From: Candidatus Finniella inopinata
GTDB lineage: Bacteria; Pseudomonadota; Alphaproteobacteria; Paracaedibacterales; CAITNM01
DNA length: 64,000 nt
NCBI GenBank assembly: GCA_943322985.2
Contig: CALPGA020000006.1
Span: 1 to 64,000 of the forward strand
Reading direction: 5' to 3'
The notes beneath the pieces were generated by a model. That model was not told the origin of the DNA and made no database searches. It worked only from the letters and a program-made list of their open reading frames with translations. Each line of letters begins with the position of its first letter. Position 1 is the stretch's first letter. Shown in pieces: positions 26,409 through 35,526 of this stretch. Both the position numbers and the translations under genes were made by a program.

Positions 26409-28577
26409 ATGTATAGTGCTGTTGCAAAGGTTTTTTTTAAATTAGCAATATGCTTGGTTATCGCAGGAGCAATTGCAACAGGAACAATTTGTAGCATTTA
26501 CTGGCACTTAAAACCGGGGCTTCCAAATTCTGATTTTTTAAACGATTATCGAGCCCCAGAAGTTACACATGTGTACGATCGACACTTTCGACCTATTCAT
26601 GAATTTGCACCTGTTCACCGAATAAATTTAAAAATTGAAGACATTCCCAAAAAAGTAATTGCTGCATTTTTGGTAGCTGAAGACAAAAACTTTTACTACC
26701 ATCCAGGCATTGACCCTATGCGTATTGCACGCGCTGTGCTTCAAAATTTTTCTCAAAAAAAATCACAGCAAACTTTAGTAGGTGCTTCCACAATTACGCA
26801 GCAAGTAGCTAAAAATTTTTTAGTAGGTAATGAAAAGAGCTTTTTGCGAAAATTTCGAGAAGCTTTTGCCACCCTTTCAATAGAACGTCAACTCAGTAAA
26901 GATAGAATTTTAGAGCTTTATTTAAATCAAATTTATTTAGGAAATGGGGCTTATGGGCTTCAAGCAGCCGCTTTGAATTATTTCAATAAAAGCATGGAAA
27001 ACCTTACAATTTCAGAAGCATGCTTGCTTGCTGCCTTACCAAAAGCACCAGCACAACTATCTAAAAATACACAAAAGCTTAAAGCCAGACGAGATGCCAT
27101 TATTCAAGCGCTTTCTGAACAAAATTATATTTCCAAGCAAGAGGCGTCATCAGCGCTTGAACAATCAATTGAATTTCATCAGGAAAAAAGCTCTCCCTCA
27201 GACTATGGGTATTACATTACTCCATTGCGTGAAGTGCTTGTTGAGGAAATGCCCAAACTCAATATCACTTCTGGGTTAGAAATTTTTAGCTGTATGGATG
27301 CGCGATTTCAACAAGCTGCTCAAAAAGCATTAAGAGATGGCTTGCTAAAATACGACTTAACACAAAAAATTTTCTACAAACCAATTGCCAAATTGGGTGA
27401 TAAATATTCAATTGAAGACCTCAATCAAATAGCAGTTCCTGATTGCCCTGAAAATTATCAAAAATCCATCGTGGATTTTAGCAGTGAAAAACCCTTTATA
27501 CAGCTACAAAACAAACAATCTCTACCTTTAGATACCACTAGCTGGTCACTTGAAACCTCCTTAACAAAAGGGGATGTCGTATTGGTTGAAGTTAAAAATG
27601 GTAAAGCACATTTACGACAAATTCCCGAGGTATCTGGAGCAGTTGTCGTTATGGAAGCGCGGACAGGACAAGTATTAGCGTTAGTGGGCGGCTGGAGCCA
27701 TACAATGTCTCCATTTAATTGCGCCACACAAGCAACTCGACAACCAGGATCTAGCTTTAAACCCTTTGTTTACCTAGCAGCACTAGAACAAGGTATCAGC
27801 CCTAATGATATTATTAACGACAAATCAATCACCATGCTGCTCAATAATGGAAGAGAAATTTATAAACCCAAAAATATAGACAAAAAAACACATGGCTTTG
27901 TAACTGTAAAAAATAGCTTGGCCTATTCCCACAATTTGTCTTCCATTCAGCTTGGGTTAGACACAGGAATTGAACATATTCAAGACATTGCAGAACTATT
28001 TGAAGTATATAATAATGCGTCAAAACACCCTTCTATGATTTTAGGCTCTAAAGAAACGACGTTATTAAAACTTACAAATGCCTACGCTATGATTTTTAAT
28101 GGCGGCTATCATTTAAAACCAAAATTTTACAATGCCTACGCCCAAAGAAAAATTTCATCTATAAATAAAAATTCCAATTTTTGCTGCTTCGAAAGACAAC
28201 AGTCTCTTATGACAGTCCCCATAAGCACTATAACTAGCTATCAGCGTCTTGCCTCACCTTCAGCTATTTTTGGGCTGCTTGAAATGTTGCGTGCTGTCAT
28301 CACTCACGGCACAGGAAAGTCTCTCTTGCCAATTGAACGTGAGTTCAGCGTTAAAATTCGTGGAAAAACAGGCACAACAAACAGCAATCGCGATGCATGG
28401 TTCATAGGAAGCGTCAGCATTCCAGGAACAATTTATCAAGATGATAATCCACTTGTAATTGGCGTTTTCGTTGGTTTTTTAAATCCTAAAAATCTTGGAG
28501 ATGGAAAAGGAGGAGCGTTAGTAGCATTACCAATATTTGGTAACTTTATAAAAAATATTGTTTCTGATACGCTGTAA
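26409..28577 (+). CDS. mrcA: Class A penicillin-binding protein (PBP1A-like)
   Basis: AEDKNFYYHPGIDP, GASTITQQVAKNFLVG, RQPGSSFKPFVYLAALE, KTGTTNSNRDAWFIG. Confidence 0.92.
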   Translation: MYSAVAKVFFKLAICLVIAGAIATGTICSIYWHLKPGLPNSDFLNDYRAPEVTHVYDRHFRPIHEFAPVHRINLKIEDIPKKVIAAFLVAEDKNFYYHPGIDPMRIARAVLQNFSQKKSQQTLVGASTITQQVAKNFLVGNEKSFLRKFREAFATLSIERQLSKDRILELYLNQIYLGNGAYGLQAAALNYFNKSMENLTISEACLLAALPKAPAQLSKNTQKLKARRDAIIQALSEQNYISKQEASSALEQSIEFHQEKSSPSDYGYYITPLREVLVEEMPKLNITSGLEIFSCMDARFQQAAQKALRDGLLKYDLTQKIFYKPIAKLGDKYSIEDLNQIAVPDCPENYQKSIVDFSSEKPFIQLQNKQSLPLDTTSWSLETSLTKGDVVLVEVKNGKAHLRQIPEVSGAVVVMEARTGQVLALVGGWSHTMSPFNCATQATRQPGSSFKPFVYLAALEQGISPNDIINDKSITMLLNNGREIYKPKNIDKKTHGFVTVKNSLAYSHNLSSIQLGLDTGIEHIQDIAELFEVYNNASKHPSMILGSKETTLLKLTNAYAMIFNGGYHLKPKFYNAYAQRKISSINKNSNFCCFERQQSLMTVPISTITSYQRLASPSAIFGLLEMLRAVITHGTGKSLLPIEREFSVKIRGKTGTTNSNRDAWFIGSVSIPGTIYQDDNPLVIGVFVGFLNPKNLGDGKGGALVALPIFGNFIKNIVSDTL

Positions 28578-28616: not shown

Positions 28617-29945
28617 TTGTCGCAGTCTTTTGTTACGCACACCGAAGAAATTCCAAGCAGCATATTAAATAAAGTCGCTGGTGGCGGTCGTACATATTCG
28701 TACTGGCGGCGCAGGATCATGCTATCTATTATGATTGGCTATGCAGCTTTTTATTTGGTGCGCCAAAATTTCACGATGGCAATTCCTTATCTACAGTCTG
28801 AGCTTGGGTATTCAAAAGCAGAAATCGGCATAATTATCTCTACGGGCGCTATACTGTATGGCCTTGGAAAAGGCCTATCTGGCTTATTGGGCGATCGAAG
28901 CAATGCTCGTTACTTTATGAGTGCAGGATTATTAGGATCAGCAATAGTTACTTTTTTTCTTGGATTCAGCTCAACATGGTTGGTCTTGCTTGCTTTATAC
29001 GCTCTTAATAATTGCTTTCAATCAATGGGGTGGCCACCTTGCGCAAGACTTTTAACCCATTGGTTTAGCCCTAGAGAAATTGGCACAAAGTGGGCGCTTT
29101 GGAATACATCTCAACAAATTGGTGGTGCCAGCGTTTTGATAATCTCCCCTTATATTATGGCTGCATATGGATGGAGATACGTCTTCTTTGTGCCTGCTGT
29201 GCTTTGCGTAGGTTTTGCTTTTTTCTTGCTCAACCGCCTACGTGATACTCCTGAATCTTTAGGACTACCACCTATTGAAGCTCACCATGGGCTTGTTGAG
29301 GCGCATGAAGTTGATGACAGCAAATTATCAACCAAAGAAATTTTCTTTCAAGTAACTAGAAACAAACTTGTATGGTATATGTGTGGCGCAAACTTTTTTG
29401 TCTATATTGTACGCATGTTTATGTTCAACTGGGCCCCTACTTTTCTAAGTGAATTTAAGGGTAGCAGCCTTAAACTAGCGGGTTGGCAAGCAGCCATGTT
29501 TGATATTACCGGCATGTTTGGTGGTCTTATCGCTGGGTATTTGTCAGACAAAGTATTTGAAGGCAGACGCGGACGTGTTGGCCTTTTATATATGCTTGTT
29601 TTAACCGTAAGTATTGTATTTTTATGGCAATCTCCTGTTAATCAAAAATGGCAACATTTTCTAAGCATGATGCTTATTGGATTTTTGGTCACAGGCCCCC
29701 AAATTTTAGTTGGTGTCGCAGCTTCTGATTTCGCTTCTAAAAAGGCCGCAGGAGCTGCTTCTGGTTTAACAGGCACTGTTGGATATCTTGGTGCAGCAGT
29801 TACAGGAGTAGGTGTTGGCCTTATCGTTGATAACTCAGGTTGGGATGCTGCATTCGCTTCTATTGCAGTTTGTGCATTACTTAGTGCTTTTTTCTTTGCA
29901 CTAACCTGGAATCACCGTGCTAAGGTTCTGGACAAGCAAAATTAA
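28617..29945 (+). CDS. MFS organophosphate:phosphate antiporter family (GlpT/UhpC-like); TTG start
   Basis: AAFYLVRQNFTMAIPYLQSELGYSKAEIG, QSMGWPPCARLLTHWFSPREIGTKWALWNTSQQIGGA. Confidence 0.85.
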   Translation: MSQSFVTHTEEIPSSILNKVAGGGRTYSYWRRRIMLSIMIGYAAFYLVRQNFTMAIPYLQSELGYSKAEIGIIISTGAILYGLGKGLSGLLGDRSNARYFMSAGLLGSAIVTFFLGFSSTWLVLLALYALNNCFQSMGWPPCARLLTHWFSPREIGTKWALWNTSQQIGGASVLIISPYIMAAYGWRYVFFVPAVLCVGFAFFLLNRLRDTPESLGLPPIEAHHGLVEAHEVDDSKLSTKEIFFQVTRNKLVWYMCGANFFVYIVRMFMFNWAPTFLSEFKGSSLKLAGWQAAMFDITGMFGGLIAGYLSDKVFEGRRGRVGLLYMLVLTVSIVFLWQSPVNQKWQHFLSMMLIGFLVTGPQILVGVAASDFASKKAAGAASGLTGTVGYLGAAVTGVGVGLIVDNSGWDAAFASIAVCALLSAFFFALTWNHRAKVLDKQN

Positions 29946-30008
29946 CATATCATTTCTCATGTTTCTTCATTTTCGTACAATTAAGGAAAAGTCTGGCATC
30001 TAAATCAT

Positions 30009-30074
30009 ATGTGGCAAGCAACTGTTTATACGCTTTTTCCAGATATGCTCCCTGGGTCAACAAGTAAACAATAA
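30009..30074 (+). pseudogene. Duplicated 5' fragment of trmD (MWQATVYTLFPDMLPGSTSKQ*)
   Basis: 30009-30056 matches 34360-34407 at 45/48 nt; first ~16 codons of trmD then stop. Confidence 0.85.
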
Positions 30075-30122
30075 GTTATTTAGAAGCTGCCAGCCACAAT
30101 CTAATTCACAGAGTATTTTTAT

Positions 30123-30569
30123 TTAGAATTTCTTTTTTTTTGCTAATTTTCCTCGGACTGTCACATTTAGATTTATAAAATCTTCAAACGTTGCGCAAGA
30201 AAAAGACAACATAGATAGATTTAACAAAAAGAAGTTACTAATCAGTGCGATTAGATATATATTTTTTTTCAGTAGATTGTAACTCTTTTTATAACACTCA
30301 TTTTTAAAAGAGCTTTGAGTCATGAATGTTTTGTAATAATCTATATTTTCAGTCTCTTTTTCTAATAAGACTTTGTCAGAGTCAGATTTATTGAGATGCT
30401 TTTTGACATATTCACCAATCCCTTCTGGATCACAATCAGATACTTCAATCACAACAGAAGCGGTAAATTTTGAAGAAATGGTATTTACTTTAGAAAAATC
30501 TGAGATTGGATTGTTATCGAGAAAAATATAGCTTTCTGAATTTTTAACAAAAAATTCTTTTTCCTCCAT
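30123..30569 (-). CDS. Orphan membrane protein with one C-terminal TM segment
   Basis: 148-aa ORF; hydrophobic NIYLIALISNFFLLNLSMLSFSCATF. Confidence 0.5.
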   Translation of the reverse strand: MEEKEFFVKNSESYIFLDNNPISDFSKVNTISSKFTASVVIEVSDCDPEGIGEYVKKHLNKSDSDKVLLEKETENIDYYKTFMTQSSFKNECYKKSYNLLKKNIYLIALISNFFLLNLSMLSFSCATFEDFINLNVTVRGKLAKKKKF

Positions 30570-30657
30570 TTGCCCTCCAATTACTAGCGAACTAAAAAGT
30601 CCTTTGATCGCTACTAAAATAGAAGTTATAAGAAAAAATTCTATCCTTCAAAATGCA

Positions 30658-30676
30658 CTAAGGAAAAATCCCTTAG
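30658..30676. promoter_or_regulatory. Candidate operator palindrome CTAAGGAAAAATCCCTTAG
   Basis: 6-bp inverted arms; 16/19 nt shared with 34211-34229 at equivalent distance upstream of another island gene. Confidence 0.5.
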
Positions 30677-33469
30677 CTAAGCATCAAAAAAGTTAAAGGA
30701 AGGGAAAATGGAAGCCCTATTGGTGATGCACTTCACATCAAATAGGTTGAGTATTGTCATCATTCCAGAATCACTAGGGAAATATTGACGAACCGTCTTT
30801 TCAAACATTGATTCATAGCTTTTCAAAATAAAAGAGTTGAAATTCCCTTGATACTTATAGTTGTTTATAAGACTTTTAATAACGATATAATTTCTTGGAT
30901 GCCGATTCTTATTCAAAATTGCAAAAGCATCTTTTAGGAAATATTCAGCGATTTTGTAATTACCCATTAGTGAGTTGATTCGCCCTATATAGTTTTTGCA
31001 AAACCCCACTTGTACAGAATTTTCACCAGCTAATTTTGTGTATGTTTTTAGCATCCTATCTAAAATGCTGAGCGCTTTCGAATATTCGTGCAAATTTATA
31101 TAAACCCGCACTAATCTTTCTAATGCCCACGATACAGATATATGATCTTTTTCACCATTTTCAATAAAAATATCTGCGTACTCTTTAACGACAGCTTCAG
31201 CAGTAAGCCAATCACCTGTGATACTAGCACTTGTTAAAGCTTTGTATATCAACGCCCATCCCATTTCACGATTCTGAGGTGTGTAGTACTTTTTGTATAC
31301 TTCGACCCCTTTGTCAATTAACTGTTTTGATTGATTTAAGTCCCATAAGTAATAATACAAAATACCAAGGTTCAAATTAACCCAAGCTACTTCAATTTCA
31401 TTTTTCCCAGGGTATTTACTATGGATATCCAAACTTTTCTCAAGCAAAATTTTTGCTTTCTTGTAATCACCAATGCGCCGGTAAAAACGTCCCATATTCG
31501 CAAAAACCCAAGCAGTTTTGGGATGCTCTGATCCATAGTGCTCTTGATAAATTTCTAAGCTTTTTTGCAAATAATGTTCAGTTTTATGATAATCACCTAA
31601 TCGTCTATAAAAATTGCCTAAATGCACTAAAATCCATACGCACTGCACAGGATTTTCTTTTTGGTAGTATTTTTGATACTTATCTAAGCTTTCCTCAAAA
31701 AATTTACGTTGTCTTTCAACATCAGACTTACTTAAAACACCCAATTGCCCTAGAACCCATGCCACTTTTGGATGAGCATTGGGATAGTGTTTTTTGTAAA
31801 CAACCAAACTATTTTCTAATAAAATTTTTGATTGACTCTGATTTACTTGCTTGATTATATCAATATTTGCAATTTTTACATTCAAATTTGCAAGGGCAAT
31901 TTTGTTTAAAATATTATCGTGACTAACTAAAACTAAAAGATGCGGCAGTAAGAGTTGTAGAGACTGCAAATCTTGTTCTACAAGAAGTTTATCAGCATAT
32001 TTTTCGATGCTCTCTGTTATATTTTCCACTTTGTTTTGTTGCTTCATAGTTTTTAAAATTTGCAAGAAATAAGAACGTACAACTGTTTGTGTGGCACTAT
32101 GTAAACTAATGGTTTTTCCACAACAACTGAGTAAAAAATGCTTTTGCAAAGCATGTAAGAACTTATCAACAGTGACAGGATTTTTATAAAAATCTAAAAT
32201 TTCTCGTGGAATATTTTTTGCATCAATCACACTCAGTAAAAGTAGTAAATCAAAAAAATCTTGATCTTCTGCTAACAAGTTTTTCACTGATAACCCAATA
32301 ATATTAAAACGAGTCTTCGTGTAATTCCCCACGTCCTTTAAAATGTCCGTTTGAGCCTCGCTAAATTGCATACTATTTTCCTGCATTCGGCTTAAGTATT
32401 CTTGAGAAGAAATCGACACTGTTTTTAAGTAATGTGCAGCTGTGGAAATGTCCAAGGGATATGGCGGCAAACTATCAAGAAAATGCTGTTCTTCTTTTGA
32501 TACATCTCCTTGAAGAGATAGAATTTTGCTATACAATTGTATCTTTTCCTTATGATCAAGCTCTGAAACTTCTATCACTGCTCCAGACATATTATTTACC
32601 GAATCACAAGTTGTTAAAATAATCTTACCCTTTCCCCAGATAGTTGAATCGTGGGGTAAATAACCTTGAATATTTTTAGTATCAGTAACGTTATCAAATA
32701 TTAAAAGCCAATCAGGATTGAGTGATAATTTTTCCTTAAGCATCTGTAATAATGTTGATTCATATTGTGGTGTGTTACGAATTTTTTGCAGGCTTTGATA
32801 CCCTGACGTGTCCCTTTCCTTGTGAAGTATTGCAATCAGAAGTTTTTCAAAAGAAATAAGAATACTTTCTTTACTACTTGCGCAAATTTCCCAAATTAAC
32901 CCTTCGTGATATTTCTTTGCGTAACTACGAGCTATAATCGTTTTTCCTGCACCTGCAACTCCTTTTAAAGCAATTATTTTAATACCATCGTGACTTTTTG
33001 AAAACTGATGTTTAATTTCCTTCAGTAAATTTTGACGTTCTAAAAACGCCAGTTTATTAGGCAAAAGCAGATCATCTTTTATAGTTGATTTTTCATGAAA
33101 AAATAAAAATTTCATTAAGAAAACACATACTAAAACACTCGCAAAAGCTGCAAACCACACAAAATTTATAGAAGATTTTTTTGAAGAATTTTGATGTATT
33201 AATTCATTGGACTGAATAATTGGTGAAAAATCTTTCCCAAGAATTTTTGTGTAATGTTGCTGCACTGATTGCAACATATTAGCTTCAACAATTTGGTCTA
33301 TTAAATGCTCTCGTGAAGTGCAATTCGTCTTAAGCATAAGATTTCTAATATGCGTTTCCACAGTTTTAGGAGAGATTTTTAATAAAGATGCCGTTTTTTT
33401 TACACCACGCCCATTTAAAAGGCAGGAAACAACATCTAGTTCTCGTGCGGTTAACAAACTTAGAGACAT
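30677..33469 (-). CDS. LuxR-type HTH - TM - NB-ARC-like STAND ATPase - TPR protein (start chosen at MSLSLLTAREL)
   Basis: LTARELDVVSCLLNGRGVKKTASLLKISPKTVETHIRNLM (LuxR HTH); INFVWFAAFASVLVCVFLMKFLFF (TM); ALKGVAGAGKTIIARSYAKKY (Walker A); WLLIFDNVTD (Walker B); repeated ~42-aa TPRs. Confidence 0.85.
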   Translation of the reverse strand: MSLSLLTARELDVVSCLLNGRGVKKTASLLKISPKTVETHIRNLMLKTNCTSREHLIDQIVEANMLQSVQQHYTKILGKDFSPIIQSNELIHQNSSKKSSINFVWFAAFASVLVCVFLMKFLFFHEKSTIKDDLLLPNKLAFLERQNLLKEIKHQFSKSHDGIKIIALKGVAGAGKTIIARSYAKKYHEGLIWEICASSKESILISFEKLLIAILHKERDTSGYQSLQKIRNTPQYESTLLQMLKEKLSLNPDWLLIFDNVTDTKNIQGYLPHDSTIWGKGKIILTTCDSVNNMSGAVIEVSELDHKEKIQLYSKILSLQGDVSKEEQHFLDSLPPYPLDISTAAHYLKTVSISSQEYLSRMQENSMQFSEAQTDILKDVGNYTKTRFNIIGLSVKNLLAEDQDFFDLLLLLSVIDAKNIPREILDFYKNPVTVDKFLHALQKHFLLSCCGKTISLHSATQTVVRSYFLQILKTMKQQNKVENITESIEKYADKLLVEQDLQSLQLLLPHLLVLVSHDNILNKIALANLNVKIANIDIIKQVNQSQSKILLENSLVVYKKHYPNAHPKVAWVLGQLGVLSKSDVERQRKFFEESLDKYQKYYQKENPVQCVWILVHLGNFYRRLGDYHKTEHYLQKSLEIYQEHYGSEHPKTAWVFANMGRFYRRIGDYKKAKILLEKSLDIHSKYPGKNEIEVAWVNLNLGILYYYLWDLNQSKQLIDKGVEVYKKYYTPQNREMGWALIYKALTSASITGDWLTAEAVVKEYADIFIENGEKDHISVSWALERLVRVYINLHEYSKALSILDRMLKTYTKLAGENSVQVGFCKNYIGRINSLMGNYKIAEYFLKDAFAILNKNRHPRNYIVIKSLINNYKYQGNFNSFILKSYESMFEKTVRQYFPSDSGMMTILNLFDVKCITNRASIFPSFNFFDA

Positions 33470-33586
33470 AAATACCAATTTATTTTTAAGATGTAGATTG
33501 CTTACAAAATGCGCCCCACATATAAGCACAATTAAGCCATTCGTAGCAAGAGAAGATGAACACCACTGCGATATAATTAGTCTCAG

Positions 33587-33662
33587 GGTATTGGTTTTTA
33601 TTTTAGGTCTGACACCCAACCTTCACAATTAAAGTGTCAGGCCTAAAATAAAAACTAATACC
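33587..33662. repeat. 29-bp inverted repeat / hairpin with 18-nt loop
   Basis: GGTATTGGTTTTTATTTTAGGTCTGACAC (33587-33615) vs GTGTCAGGCCTAAAATAAAAACTAATACC (33634-33662). Confidence 0.9.
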
Positions 33663-33714
33663 TAACCAAACTGTCTCACATACCTAAAAAAGATAATTAA
33701 GCAATCTTATTTTT

Positions 33715-33738
33715 TATTAGTTTTTATTTTTAGGATCT
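33715..33738. repeat. Third, partial copy of the inverted-repeat arm
   Basis: TATTAGTTTTTATTTTTAGGATCT resembles TATTGGTTTTTATTTTAGGTCT. Confidence 0.5.
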
Positions 33739-34119
33739 ATTTATTATTTTTTTCATTAAACCTTGAAATTTTATTTGATCGAAATATCCTAAACTTAATG
33801 CCTCACTATCGATAGTGGCCAAATATATTTCTTGATTTTGGTGTTTAACAATCATCTTTACGATGTTGCCTTCGTTACTTTTAGTAGGGTCAACGCTCAA
33901 AAACCCAGACCATCCCTTTACTGGTTTTTCACGATTATTCTTAAGAGGCGTTATTTTGAACGCTTTAGTTTCATAACAATTAAGTATTTCAATTTTGTGA
34001 TTTTGAACTGTCTGACACGCGCCCCTTTTTAATGCCTGGCACTTATCTTCATTGGATATACTATAGCCTTTAACACATGTTAATAGCATGGCTATTGTTA
34101 TTAATTTCGCTTTTTTCAT
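33730..34119 (-). CDS. Orphan small exported protein
   Basis: Signal peptide MKKAKLITIAMLLTCVKGYS; 129 aa. Confidence 0.5.
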   Translation of the reverse strand: MKKAKLITIAMLLTCVKGYSISNEDKCQALKRGACQTVQNHKIEILNCYETKAFKITPLKNNREKPVKGWSGFLSVDPTKSNEGNIVKMIVKHQNQEIYLATIDSEALSLGYFDQIKFQGLMKKIINRS

Positions 34120-34210
34120 ATTATGTTTTCCTTTTTAAATTTAATGCGAATGCGTTTGCACAGTCCTTATTTAAAAGGTTAAAAAAATAAAACATAGCGA
34201 GAAAAATACC

Positions 34211-34229
34211 CTAAGGGAAAATCCCTGAA
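34211..34229. promoter_or_regulatory. Candidate operator palindrome CTAAGGGAAAATCCCTGAA
   Basis: AGGGA-AAA-TCCCT inverted repeat; matches 30658-30676 at 16/19. Confidence 0.5.
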
Positions 34230-34359
34230 TAGTTTTTGCGTTTCTAGTTAATGATGAAAGTGAGAGCGTTTTTATAACATGGTGTTTGTGTAGAAAGTAT
34301 GTTAAATCTCAGTCGTTATACATTTTTAACTAATCCGTCCAAAAGAAGTCTTACGTCTA

Positions 34360-35082
34360 ATGTGGCAAGCAACTGTTTATACTCTTTTTCCAGATATGTT
34401 TCCTGGGCCATTAGGGCAGTCTATTGCCGGTAAATCTATGCAACAAGGAATTTGGAAGTTAAACGCGGTCAATATTCGTGACTTTGCATTGGATAAACAT
34501 AAGACCGTAGATGATACCAGTTATGGAGGCGGCACAGGCATGGTAATGCGCCCTGACGTAATTCATTCGGCACTTTCTGCGCACGCACAGCCCGGCACAA
34601 AGCTTATTTATGCATCCCCTAAGGGTAAGCCGCTTACACAATCCATGATTCGTTCGTGGCTAGCTGATTACCCAAATGGAATTGGCATACTATGCGGACG
34701 TTATGAAGGCGTTGATCAACGCGTGCTTAATCAATGGCATGAAACTCATGGCCTTGAAGATATAAGCATTGGAGATTATGTATTGTCTGGAGGAGAGCTT
34801 GCAGCACTTGCTATGCTTGATGCTTGCGTCCGACTTCTACCCGGCGTTTTAGAAAAACCAGACGCCACAACTATTGAAAGTTTTGAACTGGACTTACTAG
34901 AATACCCGCAGTATACTAAACCCCAAATTTGGAATAATACGGTCGTGCCGGATGTGCTGCTTTCTGGCGACCATAAGTCTATTGCCGCATGGCGCTTAAA
35001 AGAAGCAGAAACAATAACACAAAGCCGTCGACCTGATCTCTGGCAACGATATAAAGCCAATCAAAAGCCGGTTAAAAAATAA
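34360..35082 (+). CDS. trmD: tRNA (guanine-N1)-methyltransferase
   Basis: TLFPDMFPGPLGQSIAGKSMQQG, DDTSYGGGTGMVM, LCGRYEGVDQRV, SIGDYVLSGGELAALAMLDAC. Confidence 0.97.
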   Translation: MWQATVYTLFPDMFPGPLGQSIAGKSMQQGIWKLNAVNIRDFALDKHKTVDDTSYGGGTGMVMRPDVIHSALSAHAQPGTKLIYASPKGKPLTQSMIRSWLADYPNGIGILCGRYEGVDQRVLNQWHETHGLEDISIGDYVLSGGELAALAMLDACVRLLPGVLEKPDATTIESFELDLLEYPQYTKPQIWNNTVVPDVLLSGDHKSIAAWRLKEAETITQSRRPDLWQRYKANQKPVKK

Positions 35083-35094
35083 AAGGAAGTGTTC

Positions 35095-35526
35095 ATGAAT
35101 ATTATTCAACAAGTTGAAAAAGCCCAATTAGAAAGACTATCAATTGACAAAGTAATTCCTGACTTTCGTACAGGCGATTCTTTACGCGTGCTAGTAAAAG
35201 TTATTGAAGGTGAGCGTCAGCGTCACCAGCCTTTTGAAGGTGTAGTTATTGGCCGCAAAAATAGCGGTGTAAAATCTACTTTTAGAGTTCGTAAAATTTC
35301 TTATGGTGAAGGTGTTGAGCGCGTTTTCTCACTTTATTCACCAAACATTAAAATTGAAGTTACTCGTCGTGGCGATGTTCGTCGCGCTAAGCTGTACTAT
35401 TTGCGTGATCGTCGCGGCAAAAGCGCACGTATCGCAGAACGTGCATACCGCGCTGAACCAAAAATTGCAGCAGCACCTGTTGCGACTGCTGCTCCAGTTG
35501 AAGCAAAAGCTCCTGAAGCAGAATAA
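35095..35526 (+). CDS. rplS: 50S ribosomal protein L19 (start chosen at MNIIQQ)
   Basis: [58 protein letters not shown]. Confidence 0.96.

What the first reader, a model, noticed from the sequence alone, without database searches (positions are those of the whole stretch)
30009..34407. Genomic island inserted at the 5' end of trmD, bounded by a trmD-start direct repeat
The first 48 nt of trmD occur twice: intact at 34360-34407 and as a decayed copy at 30009-30056 (45/48 identical, encoding MWQATVYTLFPDMLPG then a stop). Weak similarity extends ~17 nt upstream of both ATGs (aagtct..c.tctaa). The ~4.35 kb between them holds only accessory genes: a LuxR-STAND-TPR regulator and two orphan small ORFs. 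The simplest reading is a duplication or recombination event that inserted a cassette while restoring trmD. No integrase is present, so the mechanism is open.
Basis: partly seen in the sequence, partly recalled or inferred. Interest (0 to 1): 0.72.

Follow-up and report, generated by a model that had tools for sequence, protein, structure and literature searches.

The report
Exchangeable gene cassette beside trmD
In a group of protist-associated freshwater bacteria, the slot just before the tRNA-methylation gene trmD holds an optional cassette (a sensor-regulator and two small genes) bounded by a worn duplicate of the trmD start; relatives show that the cassette comes and goes by ordinary DNA recombination, without an integrase of its own.

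Summary
The repeat is real: 30009-30059 and 34360-34410, 47/51 identical. The cassette between them is optional. A sister genome (pbpC-MFS about 99% identical) and three other congeners have the MFS gene 34-93 nt from trmD; three or four congeners, the window's included, carry the cassette.

The repeat is not a 48-nt insertion-site duplication but the worn rest of a longer one. The ancestral order is pbpC-MFS-A2M (bacterial alpha-2-macroglobulin)-trmD. Both cassette ends carry the A2M 3' tail plus the trmD start (~150-190 nt), and in relatives the left copy runs into a fragment of the MFS gene. So two occupants of the MFS-trmD slot (A2M, cassette) were probably joined in tandem. The window lineage then lost A2M, leaving a 14-codon remnant.

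Spread by homologous recombination is well supported: 155 nt of decayed left-end DNA is identical to a relative whose flanking genes have dS >1.4, and the STAND-trmD-rplS block is far less diverged than its left flank. No version encodes a known recombinase.

The cargo looks like one module: a LuxR-TM-NB-ARC-TPR regulator plus two genes sharing a palindrome found exactly twice in each carrier genome and nowhere else in the genus. Verdict: an integrase-free recombination hotspot, a known kind.

The parts
26409..28577 (+). PBP1A/PbpC-family penicillin-binding protein, conserved left flank
   Evidence: NCBIfam PBP_1a_fam and PbpC; syntenic in relatives
28617..29945 (+). MFS transporter (organophosphate:phosphate antiporter-like), left border of the slot; TTG start as listed, a later start is possible
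   Evidence: Pfam MFS_1, NCBIfam, present in all 11 congeners
29959..30003 (+). 14-codon remnant of the deleted A2M gene (start fused in frame to tail), shared with G002
   Evidence: sequence of G000/G002 against A2M starts and tails of relatives
30009..30059 (+). left copy of the trmD 5' end, out of use
30060..30130 (+). decayed stretch homologous by position to the MFS-gene fragment of G005/G007 left ends (not recognisable as MFS on its own here)
30123..30569 (-). 148-aa ORF, no known family; broken in G005 and G007
30657..30673 (.). palindromic motif 1 (candidate operator), 88 nt from the 148-aa start
30677..33469 (-). 930-aa LuxR HTH - hydrophobic helix - NB-ARC - TPR regulator (ATG start at 33469; a TTG start would give 980 aa)
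33587..33662 (.). long hairpin between the 129-aa gene and the regulator
33730..34119 (-). 129-aa secreted-type protein, fast evolving
34210..34226 (.). palindromic motif 2 (candidate operator), 91 nt from the 129-aa start
34250..34359 (+). decayed A2M 3' tail, upstream part of the right repeat copy
   Evidence: (155 nt incl. trmD start, 69%, E 1e-12 to the G007 left side)
34360..35082 (+). trmD, intact; its first 51 nt are the right repeat copy
35089..35526 (+). rplS-like gene (assigned from sequence and its place after trmD; not searched against a library), conserved right flank
   Evidence: syntenic in relatives

Best explanation
The MFS-trmD junction is a slot for exchangeable DNA in this Finniella-like genus (Holosporales). 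Its occupants are an A2M gene, a STAND-regulator cassette, both in tandem, or nothing. The trmD-start repeat is the remnant of the join that put the A2M allele and the cassette allele side by side: A2M tail + trmD 5' end, followed by a truncated MFS 3' piece, then the cassette, then a second A2M tail + trmD. The window's genome lacks A2M (deleted) and keeps the cassette. The cassette has no recombination gene. It moves, and is lost, by RecA-type homologous recombination in the shared flanks (A2M tail/trmD start, trmD-rplS, MFS) or between the two repeat copies, which restores an intact trmD in either case. Shown: occupancy variation, repeat composition, the MFS fragment in G005, sharp identity breakpoints, the low-divergence block. 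Inferred: the order of events, RecA as the agent, the DNA uptake route.
For: MFS-trmD empty junction in G002 (60 nt), G009, G001, G003. MFS-A2M-trmD in G004 and G006; A2M plus left trmD fragment in G008; A2M plus cassette in G005 and G007. Cassette right ends match A2M tail + trmD start of left sides over about 145-194 nt (66-77%, E 1e-9 to 2e-26). MFS-gene sequence (nt 1147 on) follows the left trmD fragment in G005 (score 33 against a maximum of 23 in 200 shuffles) and more weakly in G007 (best score 28). G000-G008 left ends: 155 nt without substitution starting at GGCATCTAA, divergent left of it, although MFS, pbpC, tatD and a fourth flank gene have dS 1.4-1.8. G000-G005 synonymous differences: STAND 0.25, trmD 0.21, rplS 0.17 against 0.41-0.73 in flank genes from 14.8 to 30 kb. 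One kilobase of STAND 97-100% identical per 200 nt, the rest 82-90%. G002's junction is left leader + right trmD, with no mismatch to G000 in 29400-30008 apart from a 6-nt indel. The same process is proposed for integrase-less hotspots (PMC5635113).
Against: All genomes are draft MAGs; G007 and G008 are broken at the cassette, and G008's cassette is seen only for its first ~150 nt. The MFS fragment is short and not recognisable in G000/G008. Low divergence of trmD-rplS to G005 is also seen in island-free G002, so that block need not have travelled with the cassette. No formal recombination test was run. An element that has lost its integrase would leave partly similar traces.
Confidence: 0.72

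Rival explanations
1. Remnant of a site-specific integrative element that entered the 5' end of trmD and brought a replacement trmD start; its integrase gene has since been lost.
For: Repeat of a gene's 5' end at both sides of accessory genes and an intact downstream gene look like such elements. G010 has a tRNA-Gln 3' fragment directly before trmD, so other elements may use the slot.
Against: No recombinase in the G000 or G005 cassette. The repeat spans the end of A2M as well as trmD and continues into MFS sequence at the left in G005/G007, which an attachment core does not predict.
Confidence: 0.13
2. Plain intrachromosomal tandem duplication (MFS 3' end to trmD 5' end), whose second A2M copy decayed in place and was later invaded by the STAND genes; vertical inheritance afterwards.
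For: Order of the pieces fits a tandem duplication; all carriers have the same arrangement of cassette genes.
Against: Does not explain the near-identical 155 nt shared by G000 and G008 or the divergence steps; some horizontal exchange is needed in addition.
Confidence: 0.12
3. MAG assembly or binning artefact.
For: All genomes are MAGs and two are broken at the cassette.
Against: Same structure in several separately assembled genomes, with sequence divergence between them; G005's locus lies within a 211-kb contig.
Confidence: 0.03

Closest known systems
[quoted passage not shown] 2017, PMC5635113)
   Same: Accessory genes at one core-gene junction, variable occupancy among relatives, no mobility genes, signs of recombination in flanks and cargo.
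   Different: The history is partly legible at base level: two occupants joined in tandem, leaving a repeat of an essential gene's start inside the slot. Seen across species of a protist-associated genus rather than strains of one species.
Integrative elements at gene 5' ends (e.g. SXT-type ICEs in prfC; from general knowledge)
   Same: 5' end of a housekeeping gene repeated at the far side of an accessory block; gene left intact.
   Different: No recombinase; the repeat spans two genes and continues into a third.
LuxR-STAND-TPR regulators (MalT/LAL-like, NB-ARC type)
   Same: GerE HTH, NB-ARC with P-loop, TPR array.
   Different: HTH at the N-terminus, not the C-terminus as in MalT; hydrophobic helix between HTH and NB-ARC, also in paralogues and in a 50%-identical relative in another family of the order.
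Bacterial alpha-2-macroglobulin genes linked to pbpC (YfhM type; linkage from general knowledge)
   Same: A2M domains and a PBP1A/PbpC-family gene close by.
   Different: An MFS gene lies between them; A2M detected in 5 of 11 congeners, always in this slot.

Membership tests
Integrase-less recombination hotspot | Variable gene content at a fixed core-gene junction among close relatives | tested here: met
   Empty, A2M, A2M + cassette, cassette only, other
Integrase-less recombination hotspot | No recombinase or transposase in the variable segment | tested here: met
   Pfam, NCBIfam and PADLOC on the island ORFs; the G005 cassette has the same ORFs. G008 and G010 segments are incomplete.
Integrase-less recombination hotspot | Recombination signal in flanking core genes | tested here: met
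   Synonymous-divergence steps and identity breakpoints; no formal recombination test was run
Site-specific integrative element | Encodes or shows remnants of an integrase | tested here: not met
Site-specific integrative element | Short attachment core duplicated at both ends, without further duplicated host sequence | tested here: not met
   A2M tail at both ends, MFS fragment at the left in G005/G007
Site-specific integrative element | Excised circle | not testable with these tools
   needs PCR or reads
LuxR-STAND regulator | GerE HTH plus NB-ARC/STAND plus TPR | tested here: met
   GerE, NB-ARC, TPR_12 and TPR_10 above their cut-offs
LuxR-STAND regulator | Binds DNA at a defined operator | not testable with these tools
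   Candidate palindrome twice per carrier genome, none elsewhere in the genus; binding not tested

The most novel reading that the evidence does not exclude
The duplicated start of an essential gene acts as a built-in recombination handle: a cassette without an integrase can be lost cleanly, or received by any relative, because every crossover in the handle rebuilds a working trmD. The cassette is a self-contained sensor module whose membrane-linked LuxR-STAND protein switches only the two genes it travels with.
Probability: 0.2. Interest if true: 0.58.

Novelty: new member of a known kind. Interest (0 to 1): 0.4.

Why it matters
It shows, at base resolution, how accessory cassettes can settle and be exchanged beside an essential gene in reduced, host-associated bacteria without mobile-element machinery. 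It is a caution that a repeated gene start beside an island need not be an attachment site. It also points to a small testable regulatory unit (STAND regulator, two candidate operators, one fast-evolving secreted-type protein).

Tried and rejected
Insertion-site duplication by an integrase: rejected as the main reading because of the A2M and MFS sequence at the ends. Assembly artefact: rejected, separately assembled genomes share the structure. Defence island: PADLOC gave only a generic TPR hit. Rfam: only miRNA-model hits to the hairpin, far below gathering scores, taken as chance. Structure of the 129-aa protein: model pLDDT 76.5, no PDB match with E below 0.05. Conservation of the whole module in a distant relative: G025 has a 50%-identical STAND but neither small ORF nor the palindrome in the 16 kb read. 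Hairpin as a dispersed repeat: no other full copy in the genome. The one paper found with trmD, genomic island and integration site is about tmRNA-SmpB and was not read further. Promoter/terminator scan near background. A last literature query was malformed and not repeated.

Full report
WHAT IS THERE. Between the copies lie, all on the minus strand, a 148-aa ORF, a 930-aa LuxR-HTH/NB-ARC/TPR protein and a 129-aa ORF with a signal-peptide-like start. The full trmD is intact (NCBIfam trmD equivalog). The ten congeners searched are draft assemblies. Two cassette carriers correspond to named MAG records: an uncultured alphaproteobacterium (G005) and 'Candidatus Finniella inopinata' (G007); Finniella belongs to Paracaedibacteraceae, Holosporales, whose described members live in protists (PMC11909080).

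THE SLOT IN RELATIVES. In G002 (pbpC and MFS about 99% identical at protein level) the MFS gene ends 60 nt before trmD with nothing in between; G009, G001 and G003 are also empty (93, 34 and 79 nt). In G004 and G006 a ~1710-aa bacterial alpha-2-macroglobulin (A2M; bMG3, MG2, BRD, bMG10 domains in the G006 protein) sits between MFS and trmD, its stop a few nt from the trmD ATG. G005 and G007 carry A2M (a stop interrupts it in G005), then a worn trmD start, then the same cassette, then trmD; G007 is split over two contigs. G008 carries A2M and the worn trmD start, after which its contig ends. A2M was detected in 5 of 11 congeners, always here. The window genome and G002 share a 14-codon A2M remnant (29959-30003), so A2M was deleted in or before their common ancestor, or the deletion was exchanged between them.

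WHAT THE REPEAT IS. The right copy is preceded by decayed A2M 3' tail. In G005, G007 and, more worn, G000, cassette right ends match A2M tail + trmD start of the left sides over about 145-194 nt at 66-77% identity (E 1e-9 to 2e-26). In G000 the left A2M tail is cut to about 27 nt by the A2M deletion, which is why only weak upstream similarity was seen. In G005 the left trmD fragment is followed by MFS-gene sequence (MFS nt 1147 onward; alignment score 33 against a maximum of 23 in 200 shuffles). G007 shows it more weakly (best score 28, against a shuffle maximum of 23). In G000 and G008 the same stretch aligns by position with G005/G007 but is too decayed to be recognised as MFS by itself. The duplication thus ran from about MFS codon 383 to about trmD codon 17-21: the mark of a tandem join of two slot alleles (or of a tandem duplication later invaded), not of a 48-nt target duplication.

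HOW IT MOVES. (i) G000 and G008 share 155 nt with no substitution (one poly-T indel) from GGCATCTAA through the trmD fragment into non-coding decay, with a sharp drop in identity left of that point, while MFS, pbpC, tatD and a fourth flank gene have dS 1.4-1.8. Unconstrained DNA would not be expected to stay identical over that time, so this end was probably exchanged recently. (ii) Between G000 and G005 the share of synonymous sites that differ is 0.25 in STAND, 0.21 in trmD and 0.17 in rplS, but 0.41-0.73 in left-flank genes from 14.8 to 30 kb; about one kilobase of STAND (30601-31600) is 97-100% identical, the rest 82-90%. (iii) Between G000 and G002, pbpC and MFS differ at 0.4-1% of synonymous sites against 6-23% further left, with no mismatch in the last 600 nt before the cassette. 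The region is a mosaic of exchanges. G002's junction is left leader + right trmD, the product expected from recombination between the repeats, but a gain of the cassette by G000 from a G008-like donor explains the data as well; island-free G002 shares the low trmD-rplS divergence to G005, which leans towards loss. Direction is not resolved. No mobility gene was found in the cassette. Exchange by double recombination at flanking core genes is the process proposed for integrase-less hotspots (PMC5635113).

THE CARGO AS A MODULE (inferred). The pattern CYTAAGGRAAAATCCCT with up to one mismatch occurs twice in each of G000, G005 and G007, at the two small ORFs of the cassette, and nowhere in the other eight congeners. 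The sites are palindromic (CTAAGG-N7-CCTTAG; AGGGATTTTCCCT), 88 and 91 nt from the two start codons in G000, and remain in G005 and G007 although the 148-aa ORF is broken there. The cassettes share ancestry, so conservation alone is weak evidence; the pairing of two sites with two genes is the point. STAND is under purifying selection (dN/dS 0.14, G000-G005) while the 129-aa protein evolves fast (0.5-0.6). STAND has a hydrophobic helix between HTH and NB-ARC, seen also in paralogues and, by eye, in a 50%-identical relative in another family of the order. A strong hairpin (z -6.4) between the 129-aa gene and STAND is nearly unchanged in G005 and largely so in G007.

VERDICT. It is a well-documented example of a known kind, with a legible history and a small regulatory module worth a bench test.

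Noticed in passing
30657-30673 and 34210-34226: Palindromic motif before both small cassette ORFs, two per carrier genome and none elsewhere in the genus: candidate operator of the LuxR-STAND protein.
   Followed up: partly
30677-33469 (residues ~99-117): Hydrophobic helix between the DNA-binding HTH and NB-ARC, also in paralogues: a single membrane crossing would put an ATP-type domain outside the cytoplasm, so the topology is puzzling.
   Followed up: partly
33587-33662: Long hairpin (29-nt arms, z -6.4) nearly identical in G005 and largely so in G007; terminator or leader element.
   Followed up: partly
33730-34119: Fast-evolving secreted-type 129-aa protein, no family or fold match.
   Followed up: partly
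L035:295-345 (G010:C78): 3' part (~50 nt) of tRNA-Gln directly before trmD in G010, with a small ORF upstream that looks like a ribbon-helix-helix protein by eye: a different insertion in the same slot; no complete tRNA-Gln match in that 89% complete MAG.
   Followed up: partly
L105:799-11344 (G025:C29): 50%-identical STAND regulator beside a 1254-aa secreted-type ORF, a possible cysteine protease and two resolvase-like genes (all by eye): possibly mobile context in another family.
   Followed up: no
L060:4987-20000 (G004:C131): Three NB-ARC-TPR-type genes in one 20-kb stretch; relatives of this protein are common across the order (26 of 42 genomes).
   Followed up: no
window 13-25 kb versus 26.2-30.0 kb: G000-G002 synonymous divergence drops from about 0.06-0.23 to 0.01 or less in pbpC-MFS: a recent exchange tract that ends at the cassette.
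   Followed up: partly
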